Assembly: GCF_009856865.1 (NCBI RefSeq)
Contig: NZ_WVUD01000020.1
Span: forward strand, 1-64,000
DNA: 64,000 bases
Source of the DNA: Solidesulfovibrio aerotolerans
GTDB taxonomy: Bacteria > Desulfobacterota > Desulfovibrionia > Desulfovibrionales > Desulfovibrionaceae
Direction: 5' to 3'
Made by a program: the position numbers and the translations under genes. Below the pieces are notes generated by a model, which searched no databases, had not been told where the DNA came from, and worked only from the letters and a program-made list of their open reading frames with translations. Positions within the stretch are counted from its first letter, which is position 1. The number at the start of each line of letters is the position of its first letter. Positions 47,765-58,318 of this stretch are shown one piece after another.

Positions 47765-48922
47765 ATGGTCAAAGCACGCGGTGTCCCGGGAAGTGGGCAA
47801 CGCCGGGCCGCCCTGACGGTCCTGGCCTGTCTGGCCGCCGTCGCCTGCTGGCTGGGGCTCACCCAGTCCCGGTTCAATCCGGCTGTGCTGGTGGCTTTGT
47901 CGCCGCCGCAACTGACTGGCTCCATGGCCGCCGCCGGCCCCACCCAGGGGGTCCAGGGACGCGCCCTGGCCACGGCTGCGCCCCTGGAAGCCCTGCCGGA
48001 TGTCACCCCGGCCTCGCCAGTGGAAAGCTACGATCCGGCCACCCTGTCCGACCGCATCGACGGCAAGGCCGAGCTGTACCTGGCTGCCAATTTTAAGGAA
48101 ATGTCCTGCCGGGCCTTTATCCTGCCAAACGGTGCCCATGTGGACGCCTCCGTGTACGCCCAGGCCGCGCCCAAGGATGCCTTTGCCGTCTTAAGCGCCC
48201 AACGCCGCCCCGGTTCGCGTCCCCTGCCCCTGGCCCCAGACGCCTACGCCACCGAAAACGCCCTCTATTTCACCCGGGCCAACCACTATGTGGAACTGGT
48301 GGCCGACCGGGCCGACGCCGCAACCATGGCCGATCTGGAACGGCTGGCCGCAAGCCTCTATGCCGCCCTGCCTGACGGGGCGGCCGCTGTTGCTGCGAGC
48401 CCAACCCAGACCCCGGCCCCGATGCCGGCGGCAGGCCCAGCAGCCCCCCCGGCCCCTGGCCCGACCGCCGTTGCCGCGCCGGCTGTCCCGACAGTGGTGG
48501 ACGAAAAAACGCTCTTCCCCACCGCCGGGCTCACCGCCGACAGCCTGCGGCTGGCCGCTGCCGATGCCATGGGCATGGCCGGGTTTTCCAATGTCTATAC
48601 CGCCGAATACGTCCTGGCCGACGGCTCGGCCACGGCCCTGCTCGCCTGGCGCGACGCCCCGGCCACGGCTACGGCCGAGGCCCGGGCCTTTGCCGATTTT
48701 TTGACCCAAAACGGCTACGCCGCCGCCCCCCTGCCGCCAAACGGCCCGCCGCTGCCGGCCGGGGCCGTGCTGCTGGTTGCCGACGGCTCGTATGAAATCC
48801 TGTGGACGCGCGGCCGGATGCTGGCCGGGGTCCACGACGCGACCAGCCGGCAAGCCGCCCTGGAATTGGCCCGGGAACTGGACGCCGGGCTGGCCAAAGC
48901 CTTGGCGCAGGAGACACCGTGA
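47765..48922 (+). CDS. DUF6599 family protein
   Basis: A 385-residue protein with an N-terminal signal or anchor (residues 15-35, TVLACLAAVACWLGL), an Ala/Pro-rich middle of about 30 residues (210-240), and two similar domains. Both carry the phrase pattern ATLSDRIDGKAELYLAANFKEM and LFPTAGLTADSLRL, typical of DUF6599. I recall DUF6599 genes next to DUF362 and 4Fe-4S proteins in sulfate reducers. Function unknown; the signal implies the cell envelope. GGAGG lies 5 nt before the ATG at 47765. The stop overlaps the next start (GTGA). Confidence 0.75.
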   Translation: MVKARGVPGSGQRRAALTVLACLAAVACWLGLTQSRFNPAVLVALSPPQLTGSMAAAGPTQGVQGRALATAAPLEALPDVTPASPVESYDPATLSDRIDGKAELYLAANFKEMSCRAFILPNGAHVDASVYAQAAPKDAFAVLSAQRRPGSRPLPLAPDAYATENALYFTRANHYVELVADRADAATMADLERLAASLYAALPDGAAAVAASPTQTPAPMPAAGPAAPPAPGPTAVAAPAVPTVVDEKTLFPTAGLTADSLRLAAADAMGMAGFSNVYTAEYVLADGSATALLAWRDAPATATAEARAFADFLTQNGYAAAPLPPNGPPLPAGAVLLVADGSYEILWTRGRMLAGVHDATSRQAALELARELDAGLAKALAQETP

Positions 48923-49977
48923 CGCCCGTCCCCCCCCGTATCCCGCCCGGAGCGCCCGCGCCCCGGGACATCGGCGCGCCGGACAGCCCCAGCCGGCGAC
49001 AGTTTTTGCGCCGGTTGGCCGTGGCCTCGGCCCTGGCCGCCACCGCCGGCGGGCTGGGGCTGGCCCTGCGCGACCCGCACGGTCCCCAAGCTGTCCCGGG
49101 CGGGCGGGTGCTGACCGGCCTGGGCGATTTTTCCGTGGCCCCGAAAACGCCGACCACGCCCCGGCTGGCCACGGTCCACGGCACGGACCGCCGGGCCATG
49201 TTCAATCAGGGGATAAACGCCCTGGGCGGCATGGAGGCCTTTATCCGCCGGGGCGACGTGGTGCTTATTAAGGTCAATGCCGTCATTGCCGCGCCGCCGC
49301 TGCTGGCGGCCACCACCAATCCCGAACTGCTGGCCGCCGTGGCCGAGGCCTGCAAACTGGCCGGAGCCGCCAAAGTGCTGGTCACCGACAATCCCATCCA
49401 CAACCCGGACAGTTGCTTTGCGGTGTCCGGGCTGGCCGGGGCGGCCCGGCAGTCCGGTGCGGCCATCCTCATGCCCAGGCAAGCCCTTTTTAGCCCCGTC
49501 AGCCTGCCCAAGGCCGCCCTGCTCACCGATTGGCCGGTGCTGGCCGGGGCCTTTGCCGGCGTGACCAAATGCATCATCCTTTCCCAGGTCAAAAACCACC
49601 AGCGGGCCGTGGCCTCCTTAACACTCAAAAATCTCTACGGCCTCCTTGGCGGGCGGCGAAACATCTTCCACCAGGACATAAACGGCATCATCGCCGAACT
49701 GGGCCGCCTGGTGCGCCCCAGCCTGTGCGTCCTGGACGGCGTTGTGTCCATGATGACCAACGGTCCCACCGGCGGCTCCCTGTCGGATTTAAAGGCGACG
49801 GGGACCATGATCCTGTCCACCGATCCCGTGGCCGCCGACGCCCAGGGCATCGGACTTCTCAATCTCACCCCGGCCGATCTGCCCTATCTGGCCCTGGCCC
49901 AGGCGGCCGGGGTCGGCAGCATCGATGCGACCAGTCTCAATCCCGTCACCCTTAACGTCGAACCGGCGGCGGGCTAG
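48919..49977 (+). CDS. Tat-exported DUF362 protein
   Basis: A 352-residue protein. The twin-arginine signal is SRRQFLRRLAVAS near residue 25, followed by a hydrophobic stretch to about 50, so it is exported folded. The DUF362 core is recognisable: GDVVLIKVNAVIAAPPLLAATTNPELLAAVAEACK, VLVTDNP, LSQVKNHQRAVASLTLKNLYGLL, and VLDGVVSMMTNGPTGG. DUF362 proteins often bind Fe-S clusters or associate with ferredoxins; here no Cys cluster is seen, so the next gene probably supplies it. Start GTG at 48919 has AGGAG 6 nt upstream. Confidence 0.85.
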   Translation: MTPVPPRIPPGAPAPRDIGAPDSPSRRQFLRRLAVASALAATAGGLGLALRDPHGPQAVPGGRVLTGLGDFSVAPKTPTTPRLATVHGTDRRAMFNQGINALGGMEAFIRRGDVVLIKVNAVIAAPPLLAATTNPELLAAVAEACKLAGAAKVLVTDNPIHNPDSCFAVSGLAGAARQSGAAILMPRQALFSPVSLPKAALLTDWPVLAGAFAGVTKCIILSQVKNHQRAVASLTLKNLYGLLGGRRNIFHQDINGIIAELGRLVRPSLCVLDGVVSMMTNGPTGGSLSDLKATGTMILSTDPVAADAQGIGLLNLTPADLPYLALAQAAGVGSIDATSLNPVTLNVEPAAG

Positions 49978-49980
49978 GCC

Positions 49981-51771
49981 ATGGGTATCGTCACCGCCCG
50001 ACGCCTGAGCCAAGGTTTTTTCCTCCTCGTCTTTTGCTGGCTGTGCCTGGTGACCACGCTTGGCGACGGGGCGTTCGAGCTGCGGGGCTGGCCGGTCAAC
50101 TGGCTGCTCTCCCTGGCTCCGCTGACCGCCCTGGCCACCGGTCTGGCCACGGGGAGCCTTTTTGCCCCGCTCCTGTGGGCCGTACCCGTGGTCATCGCCA
50201 GCCTTTTTCTGGGCCGGTTTTTCTGCGGCTTCGCCTGTCCCCTGGGAACGCTCAACCAATTAAGCGGCTATTTGACGCGCAAAACCCTCGGCCGGGCCGG
50301 CCGGGCCGAGGACAACCACCCCAGCCCGGCCCAGGGCCTCAAATACGCCCTGCTCGCTTTCCTGCTGGCAGCGGCAGTGCTCGGCAATGTCCAGACCGGC
50401 CTGCTTGATCCCCTGGCCCTGCTCACCCGCTCGGCCAGTCTGGCGGTCCTGCCGCTTCTTGACCCGCGCCAGGGGCTGGGACAGGCCGAAGCCCGCCACT
50501 ACGACGGAGCCTGGGTAGTCGGTCTGCTGCTGGTCGCGATCCTGGCGCTCAATGCCCTGCGGCCACGCTTTTTTTGCCGCTACCTCTGCCCGCTGGGGGC
50601 TTTTTTCGGGCTGCTCACCCGCTTTTCCCCCTGGCGTATCGGCAAGGCAGACACCGGCAATTGCGGCACGTGCCGGCTATGCGAAGAATATTGCGAGGGC
50701 GGTTGCCGACCGTCGGGGCAGCTGATCGTCAGCGAATGCGTGCTGTGTTTGAACTGCCTGGACCGCTGCCCCACCGGCCGCATCGGCTTTGCCGGCCGCC
50801 CGTCTGCCGCCGGGGAACAACCCCTGCCGGATTTCTCCCGGCGCGGGGCGGTGCTCGTCCTGGCCTCGGGCACGGCCGGCCTGCTCGCCGCGCCGTTGTG
50901 GTCGGTTGGCGGCGTGGCCGGGATCGGGCGCAACCCGGGGCTCATCCGCCCGCCCGGGTCCCTGGACGAAGCCCGGTTCCTGGCCCGGTGCATCCGCTGC
51001 GGCCAGTGCATGCGCGTCTGTCCGGCCAATGTCATCCAGCCGGCGGTCACCGTGGCCGGAGCGGCCGGACTGTGGACCCCGGCCCTGGATTACCGCCTGG
51101 GCCGGGCCGGCTGCCTGCCAAACTGCATCGCCTGCGGCCAGGTCTGCCCCACCGCCGCCATCCGGCCCCTGTCCATCGAGGAAAAGCGCGGCCTGGGGGA
51201 TTTCGCCGCCGCCGGTCCCCTGCGCCTGGGCACGGCCTTTGTGGACCGCTCCCGCTGCCTGCCCTGGGCCATGGGCCGGCCGTGTCTGGTCTGCCAGGAG
51301 GTCTGCCCGGTCAGCCCCAAGGCCATCACCGTGCGCGAGGTCTTTGAGCCCCTGCGCCTGCCGCGCCTCGCTGTAGCCGACAGCCGGGGCACGGTCGTGA
51401 CCCTGGCCGCCCTGCCGGCTGTTGGCCGCAATCTGGCGGCCGGCGACTTTTTCCTGCGTCCAGCCGGCCTCCCCCAGGCCACGCCCCAGCGCATCCTGGG
51501 CCGGGCCGCAGCGCAACTGACTCTGGCCGCCCCCCTGGCCGAGGCCGCCCCGGGCCGGGAGGTCGAAATCGTCGTGCGCCTGGAACAGCCCCATGTGGAC
51601 CCGGCGCAGTGCATCGGCTGCGGCATGTGCGAGCACGAATGCCCGGTGTCGGGTCTGCGTGCCATCCGCGTCACCAGCGAAAACGAATCCCGTTCCGGTC
51701 CCGGCCGCATGCTGGCCGAGGCCGCCCGACAAGGAGGACGATCATGGCGCAGGAAAAGCTTCCCGGCCTGA
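49981..51771 (+). CDS. Membrane-bound polyferredoxin (NapH/YccM-like)
   Basis: A 596-residue membrane protein. Helices at about 10-28, 45-70 and 75-95 precede FFCGFACPLGTLNQ, a redox segment used by NapH/NosR proteins, and a second FFCRYLCPLGAFFG near 200. Soluble clusters follow: CGTCRLCEEYCEGGC, CVLCLNCLDRC, CIRCGQCMRVC near 345, CIACGQVC, CLVCQEVCP and CIGCGMCEHECP near 555. It could pass electrons between the quinone pool and exported proteins of the cluster. It begins 3 nt after the DUF362 stop and overlaps the aldo/keto reductase start by 28 nt. Confidence 0.88.
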   Translation: MGIVTARRLSQGFFLLVFCWLCLVTTLGDGAFELRGWPVNWLLSLAPLTALATGLATGSLFAPLLWAVPVVIASLFLGRFFCGFACPLGTLNQLSGYLTRKTLGRAGRAEDNHPSPAQGLKYALLAFLLAAAVLGNVQTGLLDPLALLTRSASLAVLPLLDPRQGLGQAEARHYDGAWVVGLLLVAILALNALRPRFFCRYLCPLGAFFGLLTRFSPWRIGKADTGNCGTCRLCEEYCEGGCRPSGQLIVSECVLCLNCLDRCPTGRIGFAGRPSAAGEQPLPDFSRRGAVLVLASGTAGLLAAPLWSVGGVAGIGRNPGLIRPPGSLDEARFLARCIRCGQCMRVCPANVIQPAVTVAGAAGLWTPALDYRLGRAGCLPNCIACGQVCPTAAIRPLSIEEKRGLGDFAAAGPLRLGTAFVDRSRCLPWAMGRPCLVCQEVCPVSPKAITVREVFEPLRLPRLAVADSRGTVVTLAALPAVGRNLAAGDFFLRPAGLPQATPQRILGRAAAQLTLAAPLAEAAPGREVEIVVRLEQPHVDPAQCIGCGMCEHECPVSGLRAIRVTSENESRSGPGRMLAEAARQGGRSWRRKSFPA

Positions 51772-52979
51772 CCCGCCGCACGGCCCTTAAAACCCTGACC
51801 CTCGGCGGTCTGGCCGCTGCCGGGGCCGGCCTTGGCGCGACCACTGCCCTGGCCCAGGCCCCGGCAGGGCAACCCCCGGCCCCGGACAAACCGCAAACCA
51901 TGCCCAAACGCAAACTGGGCAAGACCGGCCTTGAGGTCTCCATCTTAAACCTCGGCGGCATGTTCGACACCATCAACAGCCAGCTCCTGCTCAAACAGGC
52001 CCTGGCCTGGGGTGTGAATTTCTGGGACACGGCCGAGGCCTACGGCAACGGCCAGTCCGAGGACGGTTTCGGCCGCTTTTTCGCCCGCAATCCCGAAACC
52101 CGCGCCCAGGTGATCCTGACCACCAAGCTGACGACCAAGGCCGGCCGCTTCGACGAGCGCCTGGACGAGGCGCTTACCCGCCTCAAAACCAATTACGTCG
52201 ATCTGTTCTACGTCCACGCCATCTCCGGCATCGACGAGATGGGCGGGCATTGGCGGGACTGGGCAGCCAAGCAGAAAAAGGCCGGCAAGATCAAATTCTT
52301 CGGCTTTAGCACCCACTCCAACATGGAAGCCTGCCTGGAGGGCGCGGCCAAACTCGATTTCATCGACGCCGTCATGATTTCGTACAATTTCCGGCTCATG
52401 CACGAGCCGGCCATGGTCAAGGCGCTGAACGCCTGCACCAAGGCCGGCATCGGCGTGGTGGCCATGAAGACCCAGGGCGGCGGGCCGGTCAAATCCGACA
52501 GCCAGGCCGAACTGGACATGGCCGGACGCTTTCTGGCCAAGGGCTTTACCGACAAGCAGGCCAAGCTCAAGGCCGTGTGGGACAATCCGGCCATCGCTTC
52601 TGTCTGTTCGCAGATGCCCAATCTCACCATCCTTTCAGCCAATGTGGCCGCCGCCCGCGACACGACCGCCCTGGCCCGCGAAGATGTCGAGGCGCTCACC
52701 CGCTACGCCGCCGACACGTGTTCCGACTACTGCGCCGGCTGCGCCACGGTCTGCGCTGCGGCTGCGGGCGGGAGACTCCCCGTGGCCGATGTCATGCGGG
52801 CCATGATGTATTACCGCGACTACGGCGAACGCGAACTGGCCCGGGAACTCTACGCCAGCCTGCCCGAGGCCCTTCGCCGGACCGACGGCAGCGTTGATTT
52901 CGCTGCCGCCCAAGCCGCCTGTCCCCGTGGACTGGGCATCGCCGCCATCATGGCCGAGGCCGCCGTCCTTTTGGCCTGA
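51744..52979 (+). CDS. Tat-exported aldo/keto reductase with C-terminal Cys cluster
   Basis: A 411-residue aldo/keto reductase. The twin-arginine signal LTRRTALKTL at 9-18 and a hydrophobic stretch to 37 imply export. The TIM-barrel catalytic tetrad is intact: Asp95, Tyr100, Lys128 and His158 (NFWDTAEAYG, TTKLTT, YVHAIS). A motif with Cys326, 330, 333 and 337 (CSDYCAGCATVC) near the end is a likely Fe-S or metal site. The periplasm has little NADPH, so the preceding polyferredoxin is a plausible electron partner; that is inference. AAGGAGG lies 6 nt before the ATG. Confidence 0.9.
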   Translation: MAQEKLPGLTRRTALKTLTLGGLAAAGAGLGATTALAQAPAGQPPAPDKPQTMPKRKLGKTGLEVSILNLGGMFDTINSQLLLKQALAWGVNFWDTAEAYGNGQSEDGFGRFFARNPETRAQVILTTKLTTKAGRFDERLDEALTRLKTNYVDLFYVHAISGIDEMGGHWRDWAAKQKKAGKIKFFGFSTHSNMEACLEGAAKLDFIDAVMISYNFRLMHEPAMVKALNACTKAGIGVVAMKTQGGGPVKSDSQAELDMAGRFLAKGFTDKQAKLKAVWDNPAIASVCSQMPNLTILSANVAAARDTTALAREDVEALTRYAADTCSDYCAGCATVCAAAAGGRLPVADVMRAMMYYRDYGERELARELYASLPEALRRTDGSVDFAAAQAACPRGLGIAAIMAEAAVLLA

Positions 52980-53034: not shown

Positions 53035-54039
53035 ATGAAAGCCGTCATCGCCGTCGGCGGGCACGATCCCGCCTCGCCCCAAGCCTTCGTTGACGCCGAG
53101 CGCCCCATGCCCCGGCCCGAAGAGCGCGACATCCTGGTGCGCATCGCCGCCGCCGGGGTCAATCCCGTGGACACCAAGGTCTTTGGCCGGCTGGCCCCGG
53201 GCGAGGAACGTATCCTGGGTTTTGACGCCTGCGGCGTGGTGACCGGTATCGGCCCCAAAGCCCGCTGCTTCGAAGTCGGCCAGACCGTCTATTACGCCGG
53301 AACCCCGATCCGGCCGGGCAGCAACGCCGAATACCAACTCGTGGACGAACGTCTGGCCGCCCTGGCCCCGGCCAATCTGGACCCGGGGCAGGCCGCCGCC
53401 CTGCCGCTGACGGGCCTGACCGCCTGGGAAGGCCTCTTTGACCGCCTGGGCTTCACACCGGCCCCCGGAGCCAATGCCGGCAAACGCCTGCTCGTCATCG
53501 GCGGTGCCGGCGGGGTCGGTTCCATGGCGGTGCAGCTTGGGGCCTGGGCCGGACTGGCAGTCTCGGCCACGGCCGGGCGGCCCGAATCAGCAGCCTGGTG
53601 CCGGGAACTGGGCGCAACCACAGTCATCGGCCGGGGGGACGTGGCCGAAGAACTGGCCCGGGCCGGGGTCGCTGCCGTCGAGGCCATCTACTGCACCACC
53701 CACATGGAAGAACACTGGGCAGCCATGGCCAAAGTGCTCGCCCCCCAGGGCGCAGTCTGCTTAATTGACGACCCGACCGGGCCGCTGGATATCACCCTTT
53801 TCAAGCAGAAATCCGCCCGAATCTGCTGGGAATTCATGTTCACCCGGTCGCTTTTCACCACCGGCGACATGCCGCGCCAAGGCCTTATTCTCGACAGTCT
53901 GGCCCGGATGGTGGAAGCCGGAACGCTACGCACCACAGCCAGCGCCGTCAGCCAGGGGCTGACCGCCGCAACCGTCCAGGCCGCCCATCTGCGCCAAAAA
54001 AGCGGCACCATGGTCGGCAAACAGGTCATTATTGTTTGA
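53035..54039 (+). CDS. Zinc-type alcohol dehydrogenase-like (quinone oxidoreductase) protein
   Basis: A 334-residue medium-chain dehydrogenase. The GroES-like half has PRPEERDILVRIAAAGVNPVD; the nucleotide site is LLVIGGAGGVGSMAVQLGA near 157. The catalytic zinc ligands of alcohol dehydrogenase are absent, so it belongs to the zeta-crystallin/quinone reductase branch and uses NADPH. C-terminal GTMVGKQVIIV fits. AAGGAG precedes the ATG at 53035. It lies 55 nt after the aldo/keto reductase and may be part of its operon, though it has no export signal. Confidence 0.88.
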   Translation: MKAVIAVGGHDPASPQAFVDAERPMPRPEERDILVRIAAAGVNPVDTKVFGRLAPGEERILGFDACGVVTGIGPKARCFEVGQTVYYAGTPIRPGSNAEYQLVDERLAALAPANLDPGQAAALPLTGLTAWEGLFDRLGFTPAPGANAGKRLLVIGGAGGVGSMAVQLGAWAGLAVSATAGRPESAAWCRELGATTVIGRGDVAEELARAGVAAVEAIYCTTHMEEHWAAMAKVLAPQGAVCLIDDPTGPLDITLFKQKSARICWEFMFTRSLFTTGDMPRQGLILDSLARMVEAGTLRTTASAVSQGLTAATVQAAHLRQKSGTMVGKQVIIV

Positions 54040-54314: not shown

Positions 54315-55334
54315 CTATCCTAACAGTTCATTCACCCTGCGCATGACTTCGAAGGCGTCGGCCACGTAGAGCACATCGGCCTTGCCTTGCGCCCAGCCGC
54401 AGGCGGCGTCGAGGTTGACGGCCCGGCGCTCCGTTATAAAGCGCCAGCCGACCACATGGGGTTCTTCGCCGTGGCAGCAGGTGGCCAGTCCCTTTTGGTG
54501 GCGCGGCGTGGCGCCGGTCTGGCCGACCTGATGCAGGTGGGTGAGAAACGGCAGCACGGATTCGCCTTCGCCGCCCATATCCACCAAGGATTTGCTGCTG
54601 CCCAGCGACGCTTTGGCCTTGCCCAGAAAGCCCAGGATGAGCTGGCCGGCCTCGGGCACATGGGCCGCGCCGTCACCCTGTTTTTTGGTCCAGCCGGCAC
54701 CGGCCACAAAGAGCATTTTGGCGTCGGGACGGATGGTCTGCTCGTCGGCCGAAGGGGCGACGACAGCCTTTATGGTCGTGCGGGTCATGGCCTCGGTGAC
54801 GGGCACGGAAACGTCGGTGAGGCTCGCCTGACCGGGCGCGCCGTCGTAGGCGGCGTAGCAACCGCCAGAGACGGTGACGCACCAAGGCCGGGCGGCCCGG
54901 GTCAGTTCGGCGGTCATGCGCTGGCGGTAATAGCCGCGCGTGACCAGGGGCTTACCGTCCTTGGCCGCAATGGCGACCACATGGGCGTCGATGCGGCCAT
55001 TCAGGCGTGCGGCCACGCCGGGCAGCGCCCGCGAGACGCGGGAATCGTCGGCGGCAATGATGATTGTGGCCGAGGCAGCCTTGGCCAGCGCCTCCAGGGC
55101 GGCGGCGTCGGTGGCGTAGCGGGCCACGGCAAAGGCCTCGCCGGTGACGGCGAACACCGGGCCGCAGGCGGCAACCGCAGCAGCGGCCGGGGCGACGTCG
55201 GCCCCGAACAGGCCGACAGCCAGGGTCGCACCCAGGCCTTCGGCCAGGGTTTTGGCGGCGCTCAGGGCTTCAAGGGACGCTTTGGCGAGGGTGCCGTCGG
55301 CAGCGACGGGAGCGCAAAAAAGAATGGTTTCCAT
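54315..55334 (-). CDS. etfA: Electron transfer flavoprotein alpha subunit
   Basis: A 339-residue FixB/EtfA protein that holds FAD and accepts electrons from dehydrogenases. METILFCAPVAADGT begins the N-terminal domain. The family core is less strict than in typical EtfA: VAGAGWTKK near 218 and LGSSKSLVDMGG near 255 correspond to the FAD-site blocks, and the usual signature that follows is poor. GGAGG lies just before the ATG at 55334. It follows etfB at a short distance; the pair serves the acyl-CoA dehydrogenase and the FixC-like protein nearby. Confidence 0.83.
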   Translation of the reverse strand: METILFCAPVAADGTLAKASLEALSAAKTLAEGLGATLAVGLFGADVAPAAAAVAACGPVFAVTGEAFAVARYATDAAALEALAKAASATIIIAADDSRVSRALPGVAARLNGRIDAHVVAIAAKDGKPLVTRGYYRQRMTAELTRAARPWCVTVSGGCYAAYDGAPGQASLTDVSVPVTEAMTRTTIKAVVAPSADEQTIRPDAKMLFVAGAGWTKKQGDGAAHVPEAGQLILGFLGKAKASLGSSKSLVDMGGEGESVLPFLTHLHQVGQTGATPRHQKGLATCCHGEEPHVVGWRFITERRAVNLDAACGWAQGKADVLYVADAFEVMRRVNELLG

Positions 55335-55350
55335 GGGTGAACCTCCGTCG

Positions 55351-56151
55351 CTAGCTGGCCAGCCAGTCGATGATTTCCTGGGCGATGACATCGACGGGCG
55401 TGTCCTTGACCACGCGCGTCTCGCGCTTCTGGGCCGGCAGGGTCACCGACTGATAGTCGATGGCAGCGGCGTTGACGGCGGCCGGTTTGGCCTTTTGCAG
55501 GGCCGGCATGACCAGGCGCATGTTGGCCATGCCCACTTGCGGATTGTTCGGCGGCTCAGGCAGTTCACCCGTGGCCCAGCCGAGAGCAGCCGGCGCGCCG
55601 GTGCAGGTGGAAATCTGGTACGCGCCGCCTTCGATGCGTTCCATGACTTCCAGGCTGCCGTCAGCGCCGACGGTCAGCTTGTCCACGCCCTGGAACTGGT
55701 CTGTTATGCCGAGCTTTTCGCCCAAAATCTGCAGGGTGGAACCCGAGCCGCGCGATGCCGACTGCCAGCCGCCAAAAAGGAGCAGCTTGGAGGCGTCCAG
55801 GCCGGCGATGCCGGAAATGGCGGCGAAAAGGGCCTCGGCCACCTCAAAGGAATCCACAAAGCCGCCGGCCGGACCGTCGGCCACCACCAGCTCAAATGGG
55901 GCCTTCTGGGCCACGGTCATCATCACCTGCTGCAACTTGGCCTTGGGACCAAGGGACACCAGCCAGACCTTGCTGCCCGGCACGGCCTTGGCCAGATGCG
56001 CCGCCTCGTACAGGGCGTGCGACGCCCACGGGTCCAGAATGGAGGGCAGCATCAATTCGTTTTTCAGGCCCCAGCCGGCCGGTCCCTTGACCGGCTCCAA
56101 CGTCTGCAACGGGTCCGGCACAATGCCGCCGCATACGACGATATGAAACAT
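55351..56151 (-). CDS. etfB: Electron transfer flavoprotein beta subunit
   Basis: A 266-residue FixA/EtfB protein. MFHIVVCGGIVPDPLQTLEPV is the N terminus. NPWASHAL-like PWASHALYEAAHLA and the AMP-site phrase LLLFGGWQSASRGSGSTLQILGEKLG are family blocks. The start at 56151 has GGGAG upstream; a frame to 56241 runs into repeat sequence. It precedes etfA, with 16 nt between them. Confidence 0.87.
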   Translation of the reverse strand: MFHIVVCGGIVPDPLQTLEPVKGPAGWGLKNELMLPSILDPWASHALYEAAHLAKAVPGSKVWLVSLGPKAKLQQVMMTVAQKAPFELVVADGPAGGFVDSFEVAEALFAAISGIAGLDASKLLLFGGWQSASRGSGSTLQILGEKLGITDQFQGVDKLTVGADGSLEVMERIEGGAYQISTCTGAPAALGWATGELPEPPNNPQVGMANMRLVMPALQKAKPAAVNAAAIDYQSVTLPAQKRETRVVKDTPVDVIAQEIIDWLAS

Positions 56152-56182
56152 AAGCACTCCCTTTGGGCGGCAGGAGGAACCG

Positions 56183-56222
56183 GGGGAGGAAACCCTTTTT
56201 TGCAAAAAAGGGTTTCCTCCCC
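56183..56222 (+). repeat. 40-bp perfect palindrome of the repeat family
   Basis: Bases 56183-56222 read the same on both strands with no mismatch (19-bp arms around GC), ending in the CCGGACCCCC signature on the plus strand. It lies 32 nt before the etfB start and faces the copy at 56332. Confidence 0.92.
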
Positions 56223-56331
56223 GGACCCCCACCTTCCCCAAAAACTCTTTATAGTCTTAAGGCTTTGGCTTTATTTTCCCTTTTCGGGGGTGCAATCGGG
56301 ACATTCGTCCGTGTCCCTGCTGCACCCCCCC

Positions 56332-56408
56332 CAAGGGGGTCCGGGGGGGATTATCCCCCCCGGCGGGTGCAGGGCAGAGCCCTGCCGGGGTCCGGGGCAG
56401 CGCCCCGG
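56332..56408 (-). repeat. Composite hairpin repeat after the FixC-like gene
   Basis: Three stems in a row on the minus strand: 56392-56408 (CCGGGGC-AGC-GCCCCGG), 56369-56385 (GCAGGGC-AGA-GCCCTGC), and the G/C stem with GGACCCCCTTGG. It begins within 2 nt of the FixC-like stop. Confidence 0.85.
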
Positions 56409-56409
56409 T

Positions 56410-58266
56410 TTAATTCTCGGCCGAATGCAGGCCGCCGGCACCGGCGGCGAAGCGGACGTTGGTGCGTTCGGGATCGGCCTTGGACGGTTTGGAGCAGTTC
56501 CACAGGCAGGCACCGCAATGCACGCATTTTTCCCGGTCGAAAAGCGGCACGCCGTCGTCGGGGTTGGTGGTGATGGCCTGACCGGAGCAGGCTTCGATGC
56601 AGGTCTTTTCGGCGCAGGCCCGGCAGGTGTCGGGGCACTCGAAGGTGACGTGATCGGCGTAGCCCGGCGCGGCCTGCACCTTGCCGCCGAGCAGCAGTGC
56701 GTCCTGGTGGGAAATGAGCAGCTTGCCGTCGTACTCAATTTCCGGCCAACCGACCTTGTCCATGAGCGCGTCGTGCAGAGCCAGCCCCTTGGCCGTGGCT
56801 TCCTGGCGGATGCGCGTGATCTCCTCGCAGGAGATACGGCCGTGGTAGTATTCCTCGATGGACGGGATGCGTTTGTGCACGGGTTCGGAATCGGCCGGCC
56901 AGCACAGTGCGCCTTTGGTGAGGCCAGTGAGGGCCATGCCGATGATGCCCGGGATAAAGCCGGAGGCAAAGGCCTCGCGGGAGCGGGCGGCGATTTTGGC
57001 CTCGGCCTCGACCCAGGAGGCCCGGCGGCGGGCGACGTAGGTTTTTTCGAGATTTTCCGAGGTAAAGGGCAGGCCCTTTTCCAGCAGTTCCACCACGGCC
57101 TGACCGAGCTGCACGCCCGAGGTCCAGGCCTCGTCAACGCCCGAGCCGGTCAGCACGTTGGTGGTGCCGGACCCTTCGCCAATGCGGGCGTAGCCGTCGC
57201 CAACGAGATAGGGTTCGCCGTTTTTGCCGGATTCCTGGAGCGTCTTGGCCCCAAACGAGCGGATGGTGCCGCCTTTGAGGTATTTCCAGAGATAGGGATG
57301 CTGCATCCAGTGCTGGAGGTAGCGGTAGGCGGTGCGCACGGGATTATCAAACCAGCTCGGCACGAAGATGCCCAGGGAGGCCACATGGCCGGGCAGCACA
57401 TAGAGGAAGCCGAAAATCTCAGGCTCGGGGTAGCCGATGGTGTGGATGACCGTGCCGACCTTCCAGGGGCAGTTGCCGGGCAGATCGACCACGAACTTCA
57501 TGCCCACGGCGTAGTCGCGCTGGTGGTGCCCCATGGGCAGGCCGCGCGCCTCGTCGATGGCCCGGCCGACCGGTCCCACCGGTCCGTCGCCGACCACGGT
57601 CAATCTGGCCCGCACGTCCATGCCGGGCATGTAGGCGGCGTCAGGCTTGCCGGCCTTGTCCACGCCCTGGTCGGCCAGCCGCACGCCGACCACCTTGCGG
57701 TGCTCGATTATGGGCGCGGCAACGGGCGATGCCGGCCAGATCTGGGCCGCGCCGGTGGCCATGACGGTGTTGCCCACCCACTGGTTGAACTGGCCCAGGG
57801 AAAAGGTCAGGCCGCCGTGTTTTTCCAGAAAGGGCGGAATATACGGCAGTTCAACGGCCATGTCCTTGTAGCGGCAGCCCGGGAACTTGCCGCCGAGGAG
57901 TTTGAGCGCCGCGTCAGCGGCTTTGAGCGGCAGCGACCGGCGGCTGGCTCCGTGGGGATCGACAAGATAGACGACCTTTTCCTCGGTGATGGGCGTGCAC
58001 AGCGGGATACAGGCCGGATCAAGCTCGGGCAGGCTCTCGCGGATGCCGCGCGCCTTGGACACCACGCCGGAGACGCCGACGCCGATGTCGTCGGCCCGCT
58101 CGTAGCAGATGACCTGGGGCGGCAATCCGGGCACGACCGTGCTTTCCATGACCGCCGAGCCGTCTTCGTTGACGATACCCTTGGCCAGGGTGGTCAGAAA
58201 CCCGCCCATGGCCGGGCCGAAGCCGACGCAGACAATGTCCGTTTCCATGCTCTGCCGCTCATTCAT
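56410..58266 (-). CDS. FixC-like ETF:quinone oxidoreductase with fused ferredoxin
   Basis: A 618-residue flavoprotein. The FAD site is TDIVCVGFGPAMGGFLTTLA near residue 9, and YARIGEGSGTTNVLTGSGVDEAWTSG near 375 is the second FAD contact. The C-terminal 70 residues hold two Cys groups, CRACAEKTCIEAC and CVHCGACLWNC, so two [4Fe-4S] clusters are possible where classical ETF-QO has one. It would take electrons from the adjacent ETF and deliver them to menaquinone. GGAGG precedes ATG at 58266. Confidence 0.85.
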   Translation of the reverse strand: MNERQSMETDIVCVGFGPAMGGFLTTLAKGIVNEDGSAVMESTVVPGLPPQVICYERADDIGVGVSGVVSKARGIRESLPELDPACIPLCTPITEEKVVYLVDPHGASRRSLPLKAADAALKLLGGKFPGCRYKDMAVELPYIPPFLEKHGGLTFSLGQFNQWVGNTVMATGAAQIWPASPVAAPIIEHRKVVGVRLADQGVDKAGKPDAAYMPGMDVRARLTVVGDGPVGPVGRAIDEARGLPMGHHQRDYAVGMKFVVDLPGNCPWKVGTVIHTIGYPEPEIFGFLYVLPGHVASLGIFVPSWFDNPVRTAYRYLQHWMQHPYLWKYLKGGTIRSFGAKTLQESGKNGEPYLVGDGYARIGEGSGTTNVLTGSGVDEAWTSGVQLGQAVVELLEKGLPFTSENLEKTYVARRRASWVEAEAKIAARSREAFASGFIPGIIGMALTGLTKGALCWPADSEPVHKRIPSIEEYYHGRISCEEITRIRQEATAKGLALHDALMDKVGWPEIEYDGKLLISHQDALLLGGKVQAAPGYADHVTFECPDTCRACAEKTCIEACSGQAITTNPDDGVPLFDREKCVHCGACLWNCSKPSKADPERTNVRFAAGAGGLHSAEN

Positions 58267-58318
58267 ATGCGCCTCCGTGGGTCGGTCGGTGGGTGGGGTG
58301 GTCAAGGAGGGAGAGGAA

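What the first reader, a model, noticed from the sequence alone, without database searches (positions are those of the whole stretch)
47765..52979. DUF6599, Tat-DUF362, polyferredoxin and Tat-aldo/keto reductase form a coupled export-linked redox cluster
Seen: four genes in one direction with GTGA overlap, 3-nt gap and 28-nt overlap; two twin-arginine signals; an aldo/keto reductase with intact tetrad plus a C-terminal C-x3-C-x2-C-x3-C; a membrane protein with at least six Fe-S binding groups. Known: aldo/keto reductases normally use NADPH in the cytoplasm. Inference: here an exported reductase may receive electrons from the membrane protein rather than NADPH, with DUF6599 and DUF362 as partners. 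I know no described pathway of this kind.
Basis: partly seen in the sequence, partly recalled or inferred. Interest (0 to 1): 0.8.

Follow-up and report, generated by a model that had tools for sequence, protein, structure and literature searches.

The report
Exported iron-sulfur reductase gene cluster
A four-gene set found in many Desulfobacterota seems to build a membrane electron carrier and two exported partner proteins; one partner is an aldo/keto reductase that seems to have traded its NADPH site for an iron-sulfur cluster, and the other resembles the family that holds a rare nickel cofactor.

Summary
DUF6599, Tat-DUF362, a NapH-NapG-like polyferredoxin and a Tat aldo/keto reductase (AKR) lie as described. 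The set is conserved: 26 distinct further loci have the same four genes in the same order, and 29 of 34 assessable AKRs of this subtype have the polyferredoxin upstream.

The electron-supply idea is partly supported. Across 44 type-A AKRs the catalytic tetrad is kept, residues of the usual NAD(P) loop are replaced by a conserved C-S-Q-M motif, and four cysteines remain of a ferredoxin-like tail. Electron transfer, NAD(P) binding and localisation were not measured.

New lead: DUF362 is in the Pfam clan of lactate racemase LarA and keeps the spacing H-x9-K (121 of 123 sequences); in LarA that lysine tethers the nickel-pincer nucleotide (NPN). This genome has larE-larB-larC but no larA. However LarA's D72/R75 and H108 signatures are missing, so DUF362 is not LarA. 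I rate the NPN reading at 0.25. If true, it would answer which protein uses NPN in genomes without larA.

The parts
47765..48922 (+). DUF6599 protein: one N-terminal membrane anchor (residues ~15-33), two predicted Mog1/PsbP/PknH-like domains (~67-204 and ~244-383)
   Evidence: PF20244 131 bits; hydropathy; AlphaFold2 pLDDT 77.9, pTM 0.50; VIA-align Z 12.3 to PknH extracellular domain 4esq (rmsd 2.9, 125 aligned) and Z 11.4 to TM1622 1vr8 (rmsd 2.6, 116 aligned)
48919..49977 (+). DUF362 protein with twin-arginine signal (R26 R27) and invariant H227-x9-K237-x13-H251
   Evidence: PF04015 130.1 bits; TIGR01409 19.0 bits; invariant columns in 33 sequences
49597..49671 (+). codons of H227 to H251 of DUF362, the stretch that aligns with the LarA H174/K184 region
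49981..51771 (+). polyferredoxin: NapH-like membrane part with two C-x3-C-P groups and two 4-Cys groups, then an RR-flanked helix and a NapG-like part with four 4-Cys groups
   Evidence: NCBIfam NapG/NapH hits below their cut-offs; hydropathy and cysteine conservation in 36 sequences
51744..52979 (+). aldo/keto reductase, type A, with twin-arginine signal
   Evidence: PF00248 99.9 bits; tetrad and RR conserved; model pLDDT 75.3, pTM 0.74 matches AKRs in the PDB
52593..52643 (+). residues 284-300 of the AKR: conserved I-A-S-x-C-S-Q-M-P-N-L-T-I-L-x-A-N in place of the usual NAD(P) loop
   Evidence: column counts in 44 type A, 40 type B and one paralogue
52731..52754 (+). C330-x2-C333-x3-C337, three of four putative Fe-S ligands
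   Evidence: 44 of 44 type A
52920..52925 (+). C393-P394, fourth putative Fe-S ligand
   Evidence: C in 43 of 44, P in 44 of 44; the exception is L194

Best explanation
The four genes encode one exported redox module. The polyferredoxin is a NapH-NapG-like membrane electron carrier that links the menaquinone pool or cytoplasmic Fe-S donors to four iron-sulfur clusters on the periplasmic side (inferred from architecture). The AKR is exported folded by Tat, keeps the AKR acid-base tetrad, and carries one [4Fe-4S] cluster held by C330, C333, C337 and C393 that exchanges electrons with the polyferredoxin; it has lost the usual NAD(P) loop and so does not use soluble NADPH (inferred from sequence). 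DUF362 is a second Tat-exported partner of the LarA clan that probably binds a prosthetic group at its H-K-H site, and DUF6599 is a membrane-anchored binding or docking subunit with two Mog1/PsbP-like domains (fold predicted, role inferred). Shown here: gene order, conservation, twin arginines, residue patterns. Not shown: cofactors, partners, direction, substrate.
For: Same four genes in order in 26 distinct other loci; 117 of 126 DUF6599 loci have at least one of the partners in the stretch fetched, one of them (L116) only on the other strand; 29 of 34 assessable type-A AKRs follow the polyferredoxin. Invariant RR in AKR 39 of 39 and DUF362 33 of 33; TatC present. Type-A loop: C288 44/44, Q290 43/44, M291 44/44, N300 44/44, against G in 35/40 at column 290 in type B and G in the paralogue; column 296 is I/V/L in 44/44 against Q in 24/40 and Q. 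The tail of type-B L088 matches Fer4_17 (26.9 bits, cut-off 22.2) and, under their cut-offs, Fer4_9 and Fer4_8. Polyferredoxin ligand cysteines conserved in 35-36 of 36.
Against: The NAD(P) residues are judged from recalled AKR motifs, not from a structure with cofactor; the AlphaFold2 model was not inspectable at atom level. An AKR with an Fe-S cluster but no hydride cofactor has no mechanism known to me, as AKRs have no flavin. Five type-A AKRs with enough flank have no polyferredoxin beside them (G135 two, G089, G071, G295), and L009 also stands alone, so the partnership is not obligatory. NapG/NapH model scores are far below their cut-offs. Tat models are matched by only part of the members.
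Confidence: 0.5

Rival explanations
1. The module runs as an oxidase: the exported AKR (with DUF362) oxidises a periplasmic alcohol, sugar or hydroxy acid and passes electrons through its cluster and the polyferredoxin into the menaquinone pool.
For: Nothing in the architecture fixes the direction; AKR tetrads act both ways (recalled); two ETF-domain genes and an ETF-quinone oxidoreductase-like gene lie nearby on the other strand, although no link was shown.
Against: By recalled analogy NapGH carries electrons from quinol outwards; no substrate is known.
Confidence: 0.3
2. The AKR keeps a tightly bound NAD(P) that is carried through Tat with the folded enzyme (as recalled for the Zymomonas glucose-fructose oxidoreductase), and the Fe-S tail is structural or recycles the bound nucleotide.
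For: Tat exports folded, cofactor-loaded proteins (recalled); N300 is invariant at the place of the usual Asn.
Against: The loop is rewritten in the 44 type-A sequences and the Gln, Gly and Gln positions seen in the paralogue are lost.
Confidence: 0.18
3. DUF362 and the AKR are not the catalysts: they mature or deliver a cofactor to another exported enzyme, with the polyferredoxin supplying electrons for that step.
For: DUF6599 pairs with different DUF362 and AKR subtypes in other loci without a polyferredoxin in the stretch; I recognised no recurring substrate gene in the neighbourhoods, in a clustering dominated by antisense shadows.
Against: The AKR tetrad is conserved, which suggests catalysis.
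Confidence: 0.12
4. The signals are decorative and the AKR is an ordinary cytoplasmic NADPH enzyme.
For: The window AKR itself scores no Tat model above cut-off.
Against: RR invariant in 39 of 39; Pfam Tat model matched in 17 of 39; the NAD(P) loop is rewritten.
Confidence: 0.04

Closest known systems
NapG/NapH (periplasmic nitrate reductase quinol dehydrogenase) and MauM/MauN and NosR relatives
   Same: Membrane helices with C-x3-C-P groups, 4-Cys groups, then an RR-flanked helix and four 4-Cys groups, in NapH then NapG order
   Different: One fused chain; scores 56.6-67.3 bits against cut-offs of 178.85-269; partner is an AKR. Nitrate reductase genes were not looked for
Fe-S aldo/keto reductases with a C-terminal two-cluster tail (recalled as COG1453), such as the paralogue G000:C95:94600 and the type-B AKRs
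   Same: AKR barrel, tetrad, C-terminal ferredoxin-like tail
   Different: Type A has only four of the eight cysteines, two other invariant cysteines (C231, C288), a rewritten NAD(P) loop and the polyferredoxin neighbour; the paralogue has no Tat signal, while many type-B AKRs have an RR too
LarA lactate racemase family (Lar_N, PF09861)
   Same: Same Pfam clan CL0471 as DUF362 (PMC11770544 passages; PMC7955657 passages); H-x9-K spacing and a later His; profile alignment over 175 columns
   Different: D-x-[TS]-R (D72, R75) in 4 of 121 DUF362s against 13 of 13 LarA; G-x-H (H108) in 6 of 121 against 13 of 13; Tat signal. The C-terminal LarA residues were not compared
Npun_F2552 family (NCBIfam NF052623, a DUF362 subfamily; the name points to a Nostoc gene, recalled)
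   Same: 33 of 33 type-A DUF362s match it
   Different: 71.1 bits for the window protein against a cut-off of 500; a DUF362 elsewhere in this genome scores 170.3
Mycobacterial PknH sensor domain and TiME (Mog1/PsbP-like fold, recalled name)
   Same: Predicted fold of each half of DUF6599
   Different: About 10% identity; a shared fold shows no function

Membership tests
Aldo/keto reductase superfamily (PF00248) | Pfam match above cut-off and AKR fold | tested here: met
   99.9 bits, cut-off 24; best PDB fold matches are AKRs, E 2.1e-17
Aldo/keto reductase superfamily (PF00248) | Asp-Tyr-Lys-His tetrad | tested here: met
   D95 Y100 K128 H158; 43-44 of 44 type A, the gap being a truncated sequence
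Aldo/keto reductase superfamily (PF00248) | usual NAD(P)-contacting residues | tested here: inconclusive
   Loop residues of the 44 type A differ from the paralogue and most type B; the positions are recalled, and no structure with cofactor was compared
Fe-S AKR with two C-terminal [4Fe-4S] clusters | C-x2-C-x2-C-x3-C motif in the tail | tested here: not met
   Motif in 1 of 29 type A against 41 of 44 type B; type A keeps C-x2-C-x3-C plus one distant Cys
NapGH quinol dehydrogenase | NCBIfam model score over cut-off | tested here: not met
   67.3, 62.4, 59.8 and 56.6 bits, all under cut-off; works-like claim only
NapGH quinol dehydrogenase | quinol oxidation | not testable with these tools
   Needs membranes and an assay
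Tat substrates | conserved RR in an N-terminal signal and a TatC gene in the genome | tested here: met
   RR 39 of 39 AKR, 33 of 33 DUF362; TatC 237 bits. Tat profile models match only part of them; transport itself not tested
DUF362 (PF04015) | Pfam match above cut-off | tested here: met
   130.1 bits, cut-off 24
LarA (NPN-dependent racemases) | H174 and tether K184 at spacing H-x9-K | tested here: met
   H227-x9-K237 invariant in 33 of 33; H-x9-K[NG] in 91 of 93 and 30 of 30 DUF362s; laid on LarA's pair without gap by hhalign
LarA (NPN-dependent racemases) | D72-x2-R75 | tested here: not met
   D-x-[TS]-R: 13 of 13 LarA, 4 of 121 DUF362
LarA (NPN-dependent racemases) | H108 in G-x-H | tested here: not met
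   13 of 13 LarA, 6 of 121 DUF362
LarA (NPN-dependent racemases) | H200 nickel ligand | tested here: inconclusive
   A His follows the Lys after 12-15 intervening residues in 89 of 91 DUF362s against 15 in LarA; hhalign has a gapped stretch there
DUF6599 (PF20244) | Pfam match above cut-off | tested here: met
   131 bits, cut-off 27
Mog1/PsbP-like fold (DUF6599) | fold | tested here: inconclusive
   Z 12.3 and 11.4 for the two halves; LpqN 7.0 and PsbP 5.7 at most, which may mean only a common arrangement; model from 7 sequences

The most novel reading that the evidence does not exclude
DUF362 is the missing user of the nickel-pincer nucleotide (NPN). In this cluster an exported DUF362 holds NPN on K237 as a non-dissociable hydride carrier, and with the NAD-free Fe-S aldo/keto reductase and the quinone-linked polyferredoxin it does carbonyl/alcohol redox chemistry outside the cytoplasm, where NAD(P)H is not available. 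Genomes that make NPN without LarA (this one included) would use it in DUF362 proteins.
Probability: 0.25. Interest if true: 0.88.

Novelty: new variant of a known kind. Interest (0 to 1): 0.64.

Why it matters
If the core reading is right, there is a widespread, unstudied way for anaerobes to do aldo/keto reductase chemistry outside the cytoplasm without NADPH. If the NPN reading is right, it answers a question stated in print: about 15% of analysed genomes have larB, larE and larC but no larA, and cyanobacteria are thought to use NPN in a yet unidentified protein (PMC11796402, passages). Either way DUF362, a large family for which I found no assigned function (listing; passages of four papers), gets a direct laboratory test: does K237 gain the NPN mass when expressed with LarB, LarC and LarE.

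Tried and rejected
Rejected: the C-x3-C-x2-C-x3-C ligand set, because its first Cys is not conserved. Rejected: DUF362 as an ordinary LarA, because D72/R75 and H108 signatures are missing and G000 has no PF09861 match at E<=0.001. A first profile comparison of DUF362 and LarA, with 48 higher-scoring DUF362s, gave Prob 6.4 over 56 columns; the positive result (Prob 90.3, one-template E 1.5e-6) came only with the diverse set and a cleaned LarA set. LarA-HMM scores of single DUF362s are weak, best domain 10.5 bits among 97 sequences.

Led nowhere: neighbour clustering gave mostly antisense shadows and no substrate gene that I recognised. Paper searches: DUF6599 (0 papers), AKR with 4Fe-4S and twin-arginine (0), two wider ones (0). 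COG2006 (4 papers) and COG1453 (1 paper): listings only; no listed title or abstract start concerns this cluster. DUF362 gave 9 papers; passages of four were read, one being about DUF3623; five were seen as listing only. NPN papers: passages of four; those of PMC12611868 and PMC9283937 added nothing that I use. PDB sequence search of DUF362 found nothing up to E 1 and of DUF6599 one match at 0.2. Cysteine geometry could not be measured: model coordinates are not in the Python box. Foldseek for DUF6599 gave no match at E<=0.001. By coordinates DUF362 seemed near larE in three genomes and I fetched the stretches, but gene calling there was unclear, so I count nothing from it.

Results against my reading: f18, f36 and f48 genomes have larC and larE but neither LarA nor DUF362 at the thresholds used. 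G067 has DUF362 and LarA but neither larC nor larE. Among the 14 control genomes Bacteroides ihuae has DUF362 without larC or larE, and Methanocaldococcus jannaschii and Corynebacterium glutamicum (larC only) lack DUF362; four have DUF362 with larC and larE, Haloferax volcanii only at the looser threshold (one-sided Fisher 0.063). The control family AKR also goes with the lar genes, odds ratio 14 against 119 for DUF362, in genomes at least 95% complete, so part of the signal is genome reduction; genomes are not independent. G295, counted with type A (342 bits), is an outlier with no twin arginine at its start and was left out of the residue counts. The DUF362 motif was first seen in the sequences it was then counted in; the 30 further members are the best-scoring ones, not a random draw.
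Full report
What is there. Pfam names are PF20244 (DUF6599), PF04015 (DUF362), several Fer4 families, and PF00248. The host genome, G000, has 4.61 Mb and is 99.99% complete. The five closest AKRs found (70-75% identity) are in records titled Solidesulfovibrio.

How common it is. PF20244 occurs in 103 of 395 genomes of the phylum and in 0 of 14 control genomes. Of its 146 rows (recounted) I fetched 120 stretches that cover 121; 24 mostly weak rows and the window's own were left out. With the ten loci this gave 130 loci, 126 of them with DUF6599. Of these 126, 117 hold a DUF362, AKR or polyferredoxin gene in the stretch and 9 show DUF6599 alone; 7 of the 9 lie within 400 nt of a contig end. The order DUF6599-DUF362-polyferredoxin-AKR is found in 27 loci (one, L010, printed in another order because its open frame starts early). 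L012 and L073 are the same contig, so 26 are distinct, plus the window. Other arrangements: AKR-DUF6599 pairs (29), DUF6599 with a weakly scoring DUF362 (29; two of them scanned: DUF362 above cut-off, Tat below), and four-gene sets in another order with other subtypes (6). In the 27 loci the downstream frame is open within 30 nt of the upstream stop in 21, 22 and 11 cases for the three junctions; these are frame openings, not start codons.

The AKR seeded the other way. A profile of ten type-A AKRs (at most four candidates scored per genome) finds two groups in 395 genomes: type A at 342 bits or more and type B at 212 or less. There are 38 type-A rows in 33 genomes: 37 of 342 bits or more and one G135 fragment of 187 bits next to its polyferredoxin. 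For 29 the polyferredoxin lies upstream, mostly within 0.2 kb and at most 0.8 kb; 4 lie at or near a contig start (three within 20 nt, one with 1.3 kb); 5 stand elsewhere. L009, also stands alone. This tally was made by hand from the three calls.

The AKR residues. I aligned 44 type-A and 40 type-B sequences with the other AKR of the same genome, which also has an Fe-S tail; two duplicates and six fragments or low-scoring rows were dropped. The tetrad is kept (one truncated sequence lacks the first two positions). In type A the loop that follows strand 8 reads C-S-Q-M-P-N: C288 in 44 of 44, Q290 in 43, M291 in 44. Type B has G at column 290 in 35 of 40 and Q at 296 in 24 of 40, as the paralogue has; type A has I, V or L at 296 in all. 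A Gln at column 211 in the paralogue is M in 43 of 44 type A and L in 39 of 40 type B. That these positions touch NAD(P) is recalled from AKR structures. C231 and C288 are invariant in type A and never Cys in type B.

The Fe-S tail. The tail of one type-B AKR (L088) matches Pfam Fer4_17 above cut-off, and Fer4_9 and Fer4_8 below it, so the tail is ferredoxin-like. Type B has C-x2-C-x2-C-x3-C in 41 of 44 and, in most rows printed, a second set further on. Type A keeps C330, C333, C337 and C393 (44, 44, 44 and 43 of 44). In a 2[4Fe-4S] ferredoxin (recalled) one cluster is held by the first three cysteines of motif one and the last of motif two; type A looks as if it kept that cluster and lost the other. 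This is inference. The AlphaFold2 model (pLDDT 75.3, pTM 0.74) matches AKRs in the PDB but gave no atom positions to me.

Signals. RR is invariant in 39 AKRs; of the 44, L011, L189 and L192 are cut short, and L008 and L194 were not entered but show RR too. RR is invariant in 33 DUF362s; L010, a duplicate and four cut sequences were left out. Profile models see less: PF10518 in 17 of 39 AKRs and in none of the 33 DUF362s; TIGR01409 in 10 of 33. G000 has TatC.

The polyferredoxin. Hydropathy shows helices near 9-27, 60-78, 119-140, 175-193 and 291-309. The two C-x3-C-P groups follow the second and fourth, two 4-Cys groups precede the fifth, which starts with S-R-R, and four follow it. With N-terminus inside, that puts two groups in the cytoplasm and four in the periplasm (inference). 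NapH and NapG models match the two halves in order, well below their cut-offs. The ligand cysteines are conserved in 35-36 of 36.

DUF6599. It has one N-terminal anchor. The model (7 sequences, pLDDT 77.9, pTM 0.50) has two similar alpha-beta domains. VIA-align gives Z 12.3 for residues 67-204 with the PknH extracellular domain (rmsd 2.9, 125 aligned) and Z 11.4 for 244-383 with TM1622 (rmsd 2.6, 116 aligned); TiME has Z 10.0, LpqN 7.0 and PsbP 5.7 or less. Foldseek alone had no match at E<=0.001. I read this as a periplasmic binding or docking subunit.

DUF362 and nickel-pincer nucleotide. DUF362 shares Pfam clan CL0471 with the LarA family: PMC11770544 used it as outgroup for that reason (passages), and PMC7955657 calls the clan DUF362-like (passages). 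PMC7583248 lists R75, K184 and H200 as NPN-contacting and D72, H108, H174 and K298 as catalytic in LarA (passages). LarA loci fetched here show H-x9-K-x15-H in 13 of 15 extracted ORFs; the other two (L167, L177) have lengths that do not fit the hit and were dropped. DUF362 has H-x9-K[NG] in 91 of 93 (the two misses are ORFs of 204 and 219 residues at a contig start) and in 30 of 30 further, best-scoring members; a His follows after 12-15 residues in 89 of the 91. In type A, H227, K237 and H251 are invariant in 33 of 33. A profile-profile alignment of diverse DUF362s with LarA gives Prob 90.3 over 175 columns at 10% identity and lays H on H and K on K without a gap; a narrower set gave Prob 6.4. 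Against it: D-x-[TS]-R is in 13 of 13 LarA and 4 of 121 DUF362s, and G-x-H in 13 of 13 and 6 of 121.

The lar genes. G000 has larE, larB and larC side by side: TIGR00268 238.9 bits, NF033503 243.3, TIGR00299 167.3, no LarA at E<=0.001, and five DUF362 genes. In 148 phylum genomes LarC is in 126 (E<=1e-10), LarE in 126 (1e-20), LarA in 84 (1e-15) and DUF362 in 132 (1e-10). Among 104 genomes at least 95% complete, LarC or LarE is present in 89 of 90 DUF362 genomes and 6 of 14 others (Fisher 1e-7; by family 56 of 56 against 5 of 8, p 0.0013). AKR as a control gives 61 of 62 against 34 of 42, p 0.003, so genome reduction explains part. Forty of the 104 have LarC or LarE but no LarA, and 36 of these have DUF362, near the overall rate of 90 of 104: the informative part is that 1 of 9 genomes without LarC and LarE has DUF362. 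PMC11796402 states that about 15% of analysed genomes have larB, larE and larC without larA and that cyanobacteria likely use NPN in an unidentified protein (passages). In the control genomes Synechococcus elongatus has DUF362, LarC and LarE and no LarA. [quoted passage not shown]

How it most likely works. Shown: order, conservation, signals and residue patterns. Inferred: electrons pass between the membrane pool and the AKR cluster through the polyferredoxin; the AKR does not use soluble NADPH; DUF362 carries a prosthetic group; DUF6599 docks. The missing step is how an AKR without nicotinamide or flavin moves a hydride. A nicotinate-derived NPN on DUF362 would fill that gap, which is why I keep that reading as the boldest, at 0.25.

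Novelty. Each protein belongs to a known family, and Fe-S AKRs and NapGH-like carriers are known kinds; the exported, apparently NAD-free AKR joined to such a carrier is a new variant. I found no paper on the cluster in the searches, which cover an open-access library only.

Noticed in passing
L232 6824-9148 (G000:C95, minus strand): Intact-looking larE-larB-larC run in the window's genome, with no LarA match in it. LarC matches only the first 229 of 375 positions of PF01969.
   Followed up: partly
L233 4707-8028 (G000:C95, minus strand): Another DUF362 gene (170.3 bits to the Npun_F2552 model) lies directly upstream of hypF, a nickel-hydrogenase maturation gene.
   Followed up: no
L006, L010, L015, L047, L051, L054, L055, L058, L063, L097, L188, L191: A probably secreted protein of about 200 residues lies just upstream of DUF6599 in ten of these loci and beside a lone type-A AKR in L188 and L191; three scanned have no Pfam match. 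A search of the window's frames with its profile found nothing.
   Followed up: partly
G017, G055, G091, G120 (family f18), G035, G066: Genomes with LarC and LarE but neither LarA nor DUF362 at the thresholds used: a further unexplained NPN user.
   Followed up: no
window 54315-58305, minus strand: Two ETF-domain genes and an ETF-quinone oxidoreductase-like gene lie convergent to the cluster, after a zinc-type dehydrogenase gene at 53035-54036 on +.
   Followed up: partly
L049, L053, L062, L064, L065, L071: A second version of the four-gene set with type-B AKR, mid-scoring DUF362 and a lower-scoring polyferredoxin, in another order.
   Followed up: partly
window residues C231 and C288 of the AKR (52434-52436, 52605-52607): Two extra cysteines invariant in 44 of 44 type-A AKRs and absent from all 40 type-B; role unknown.
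   Followed up: no
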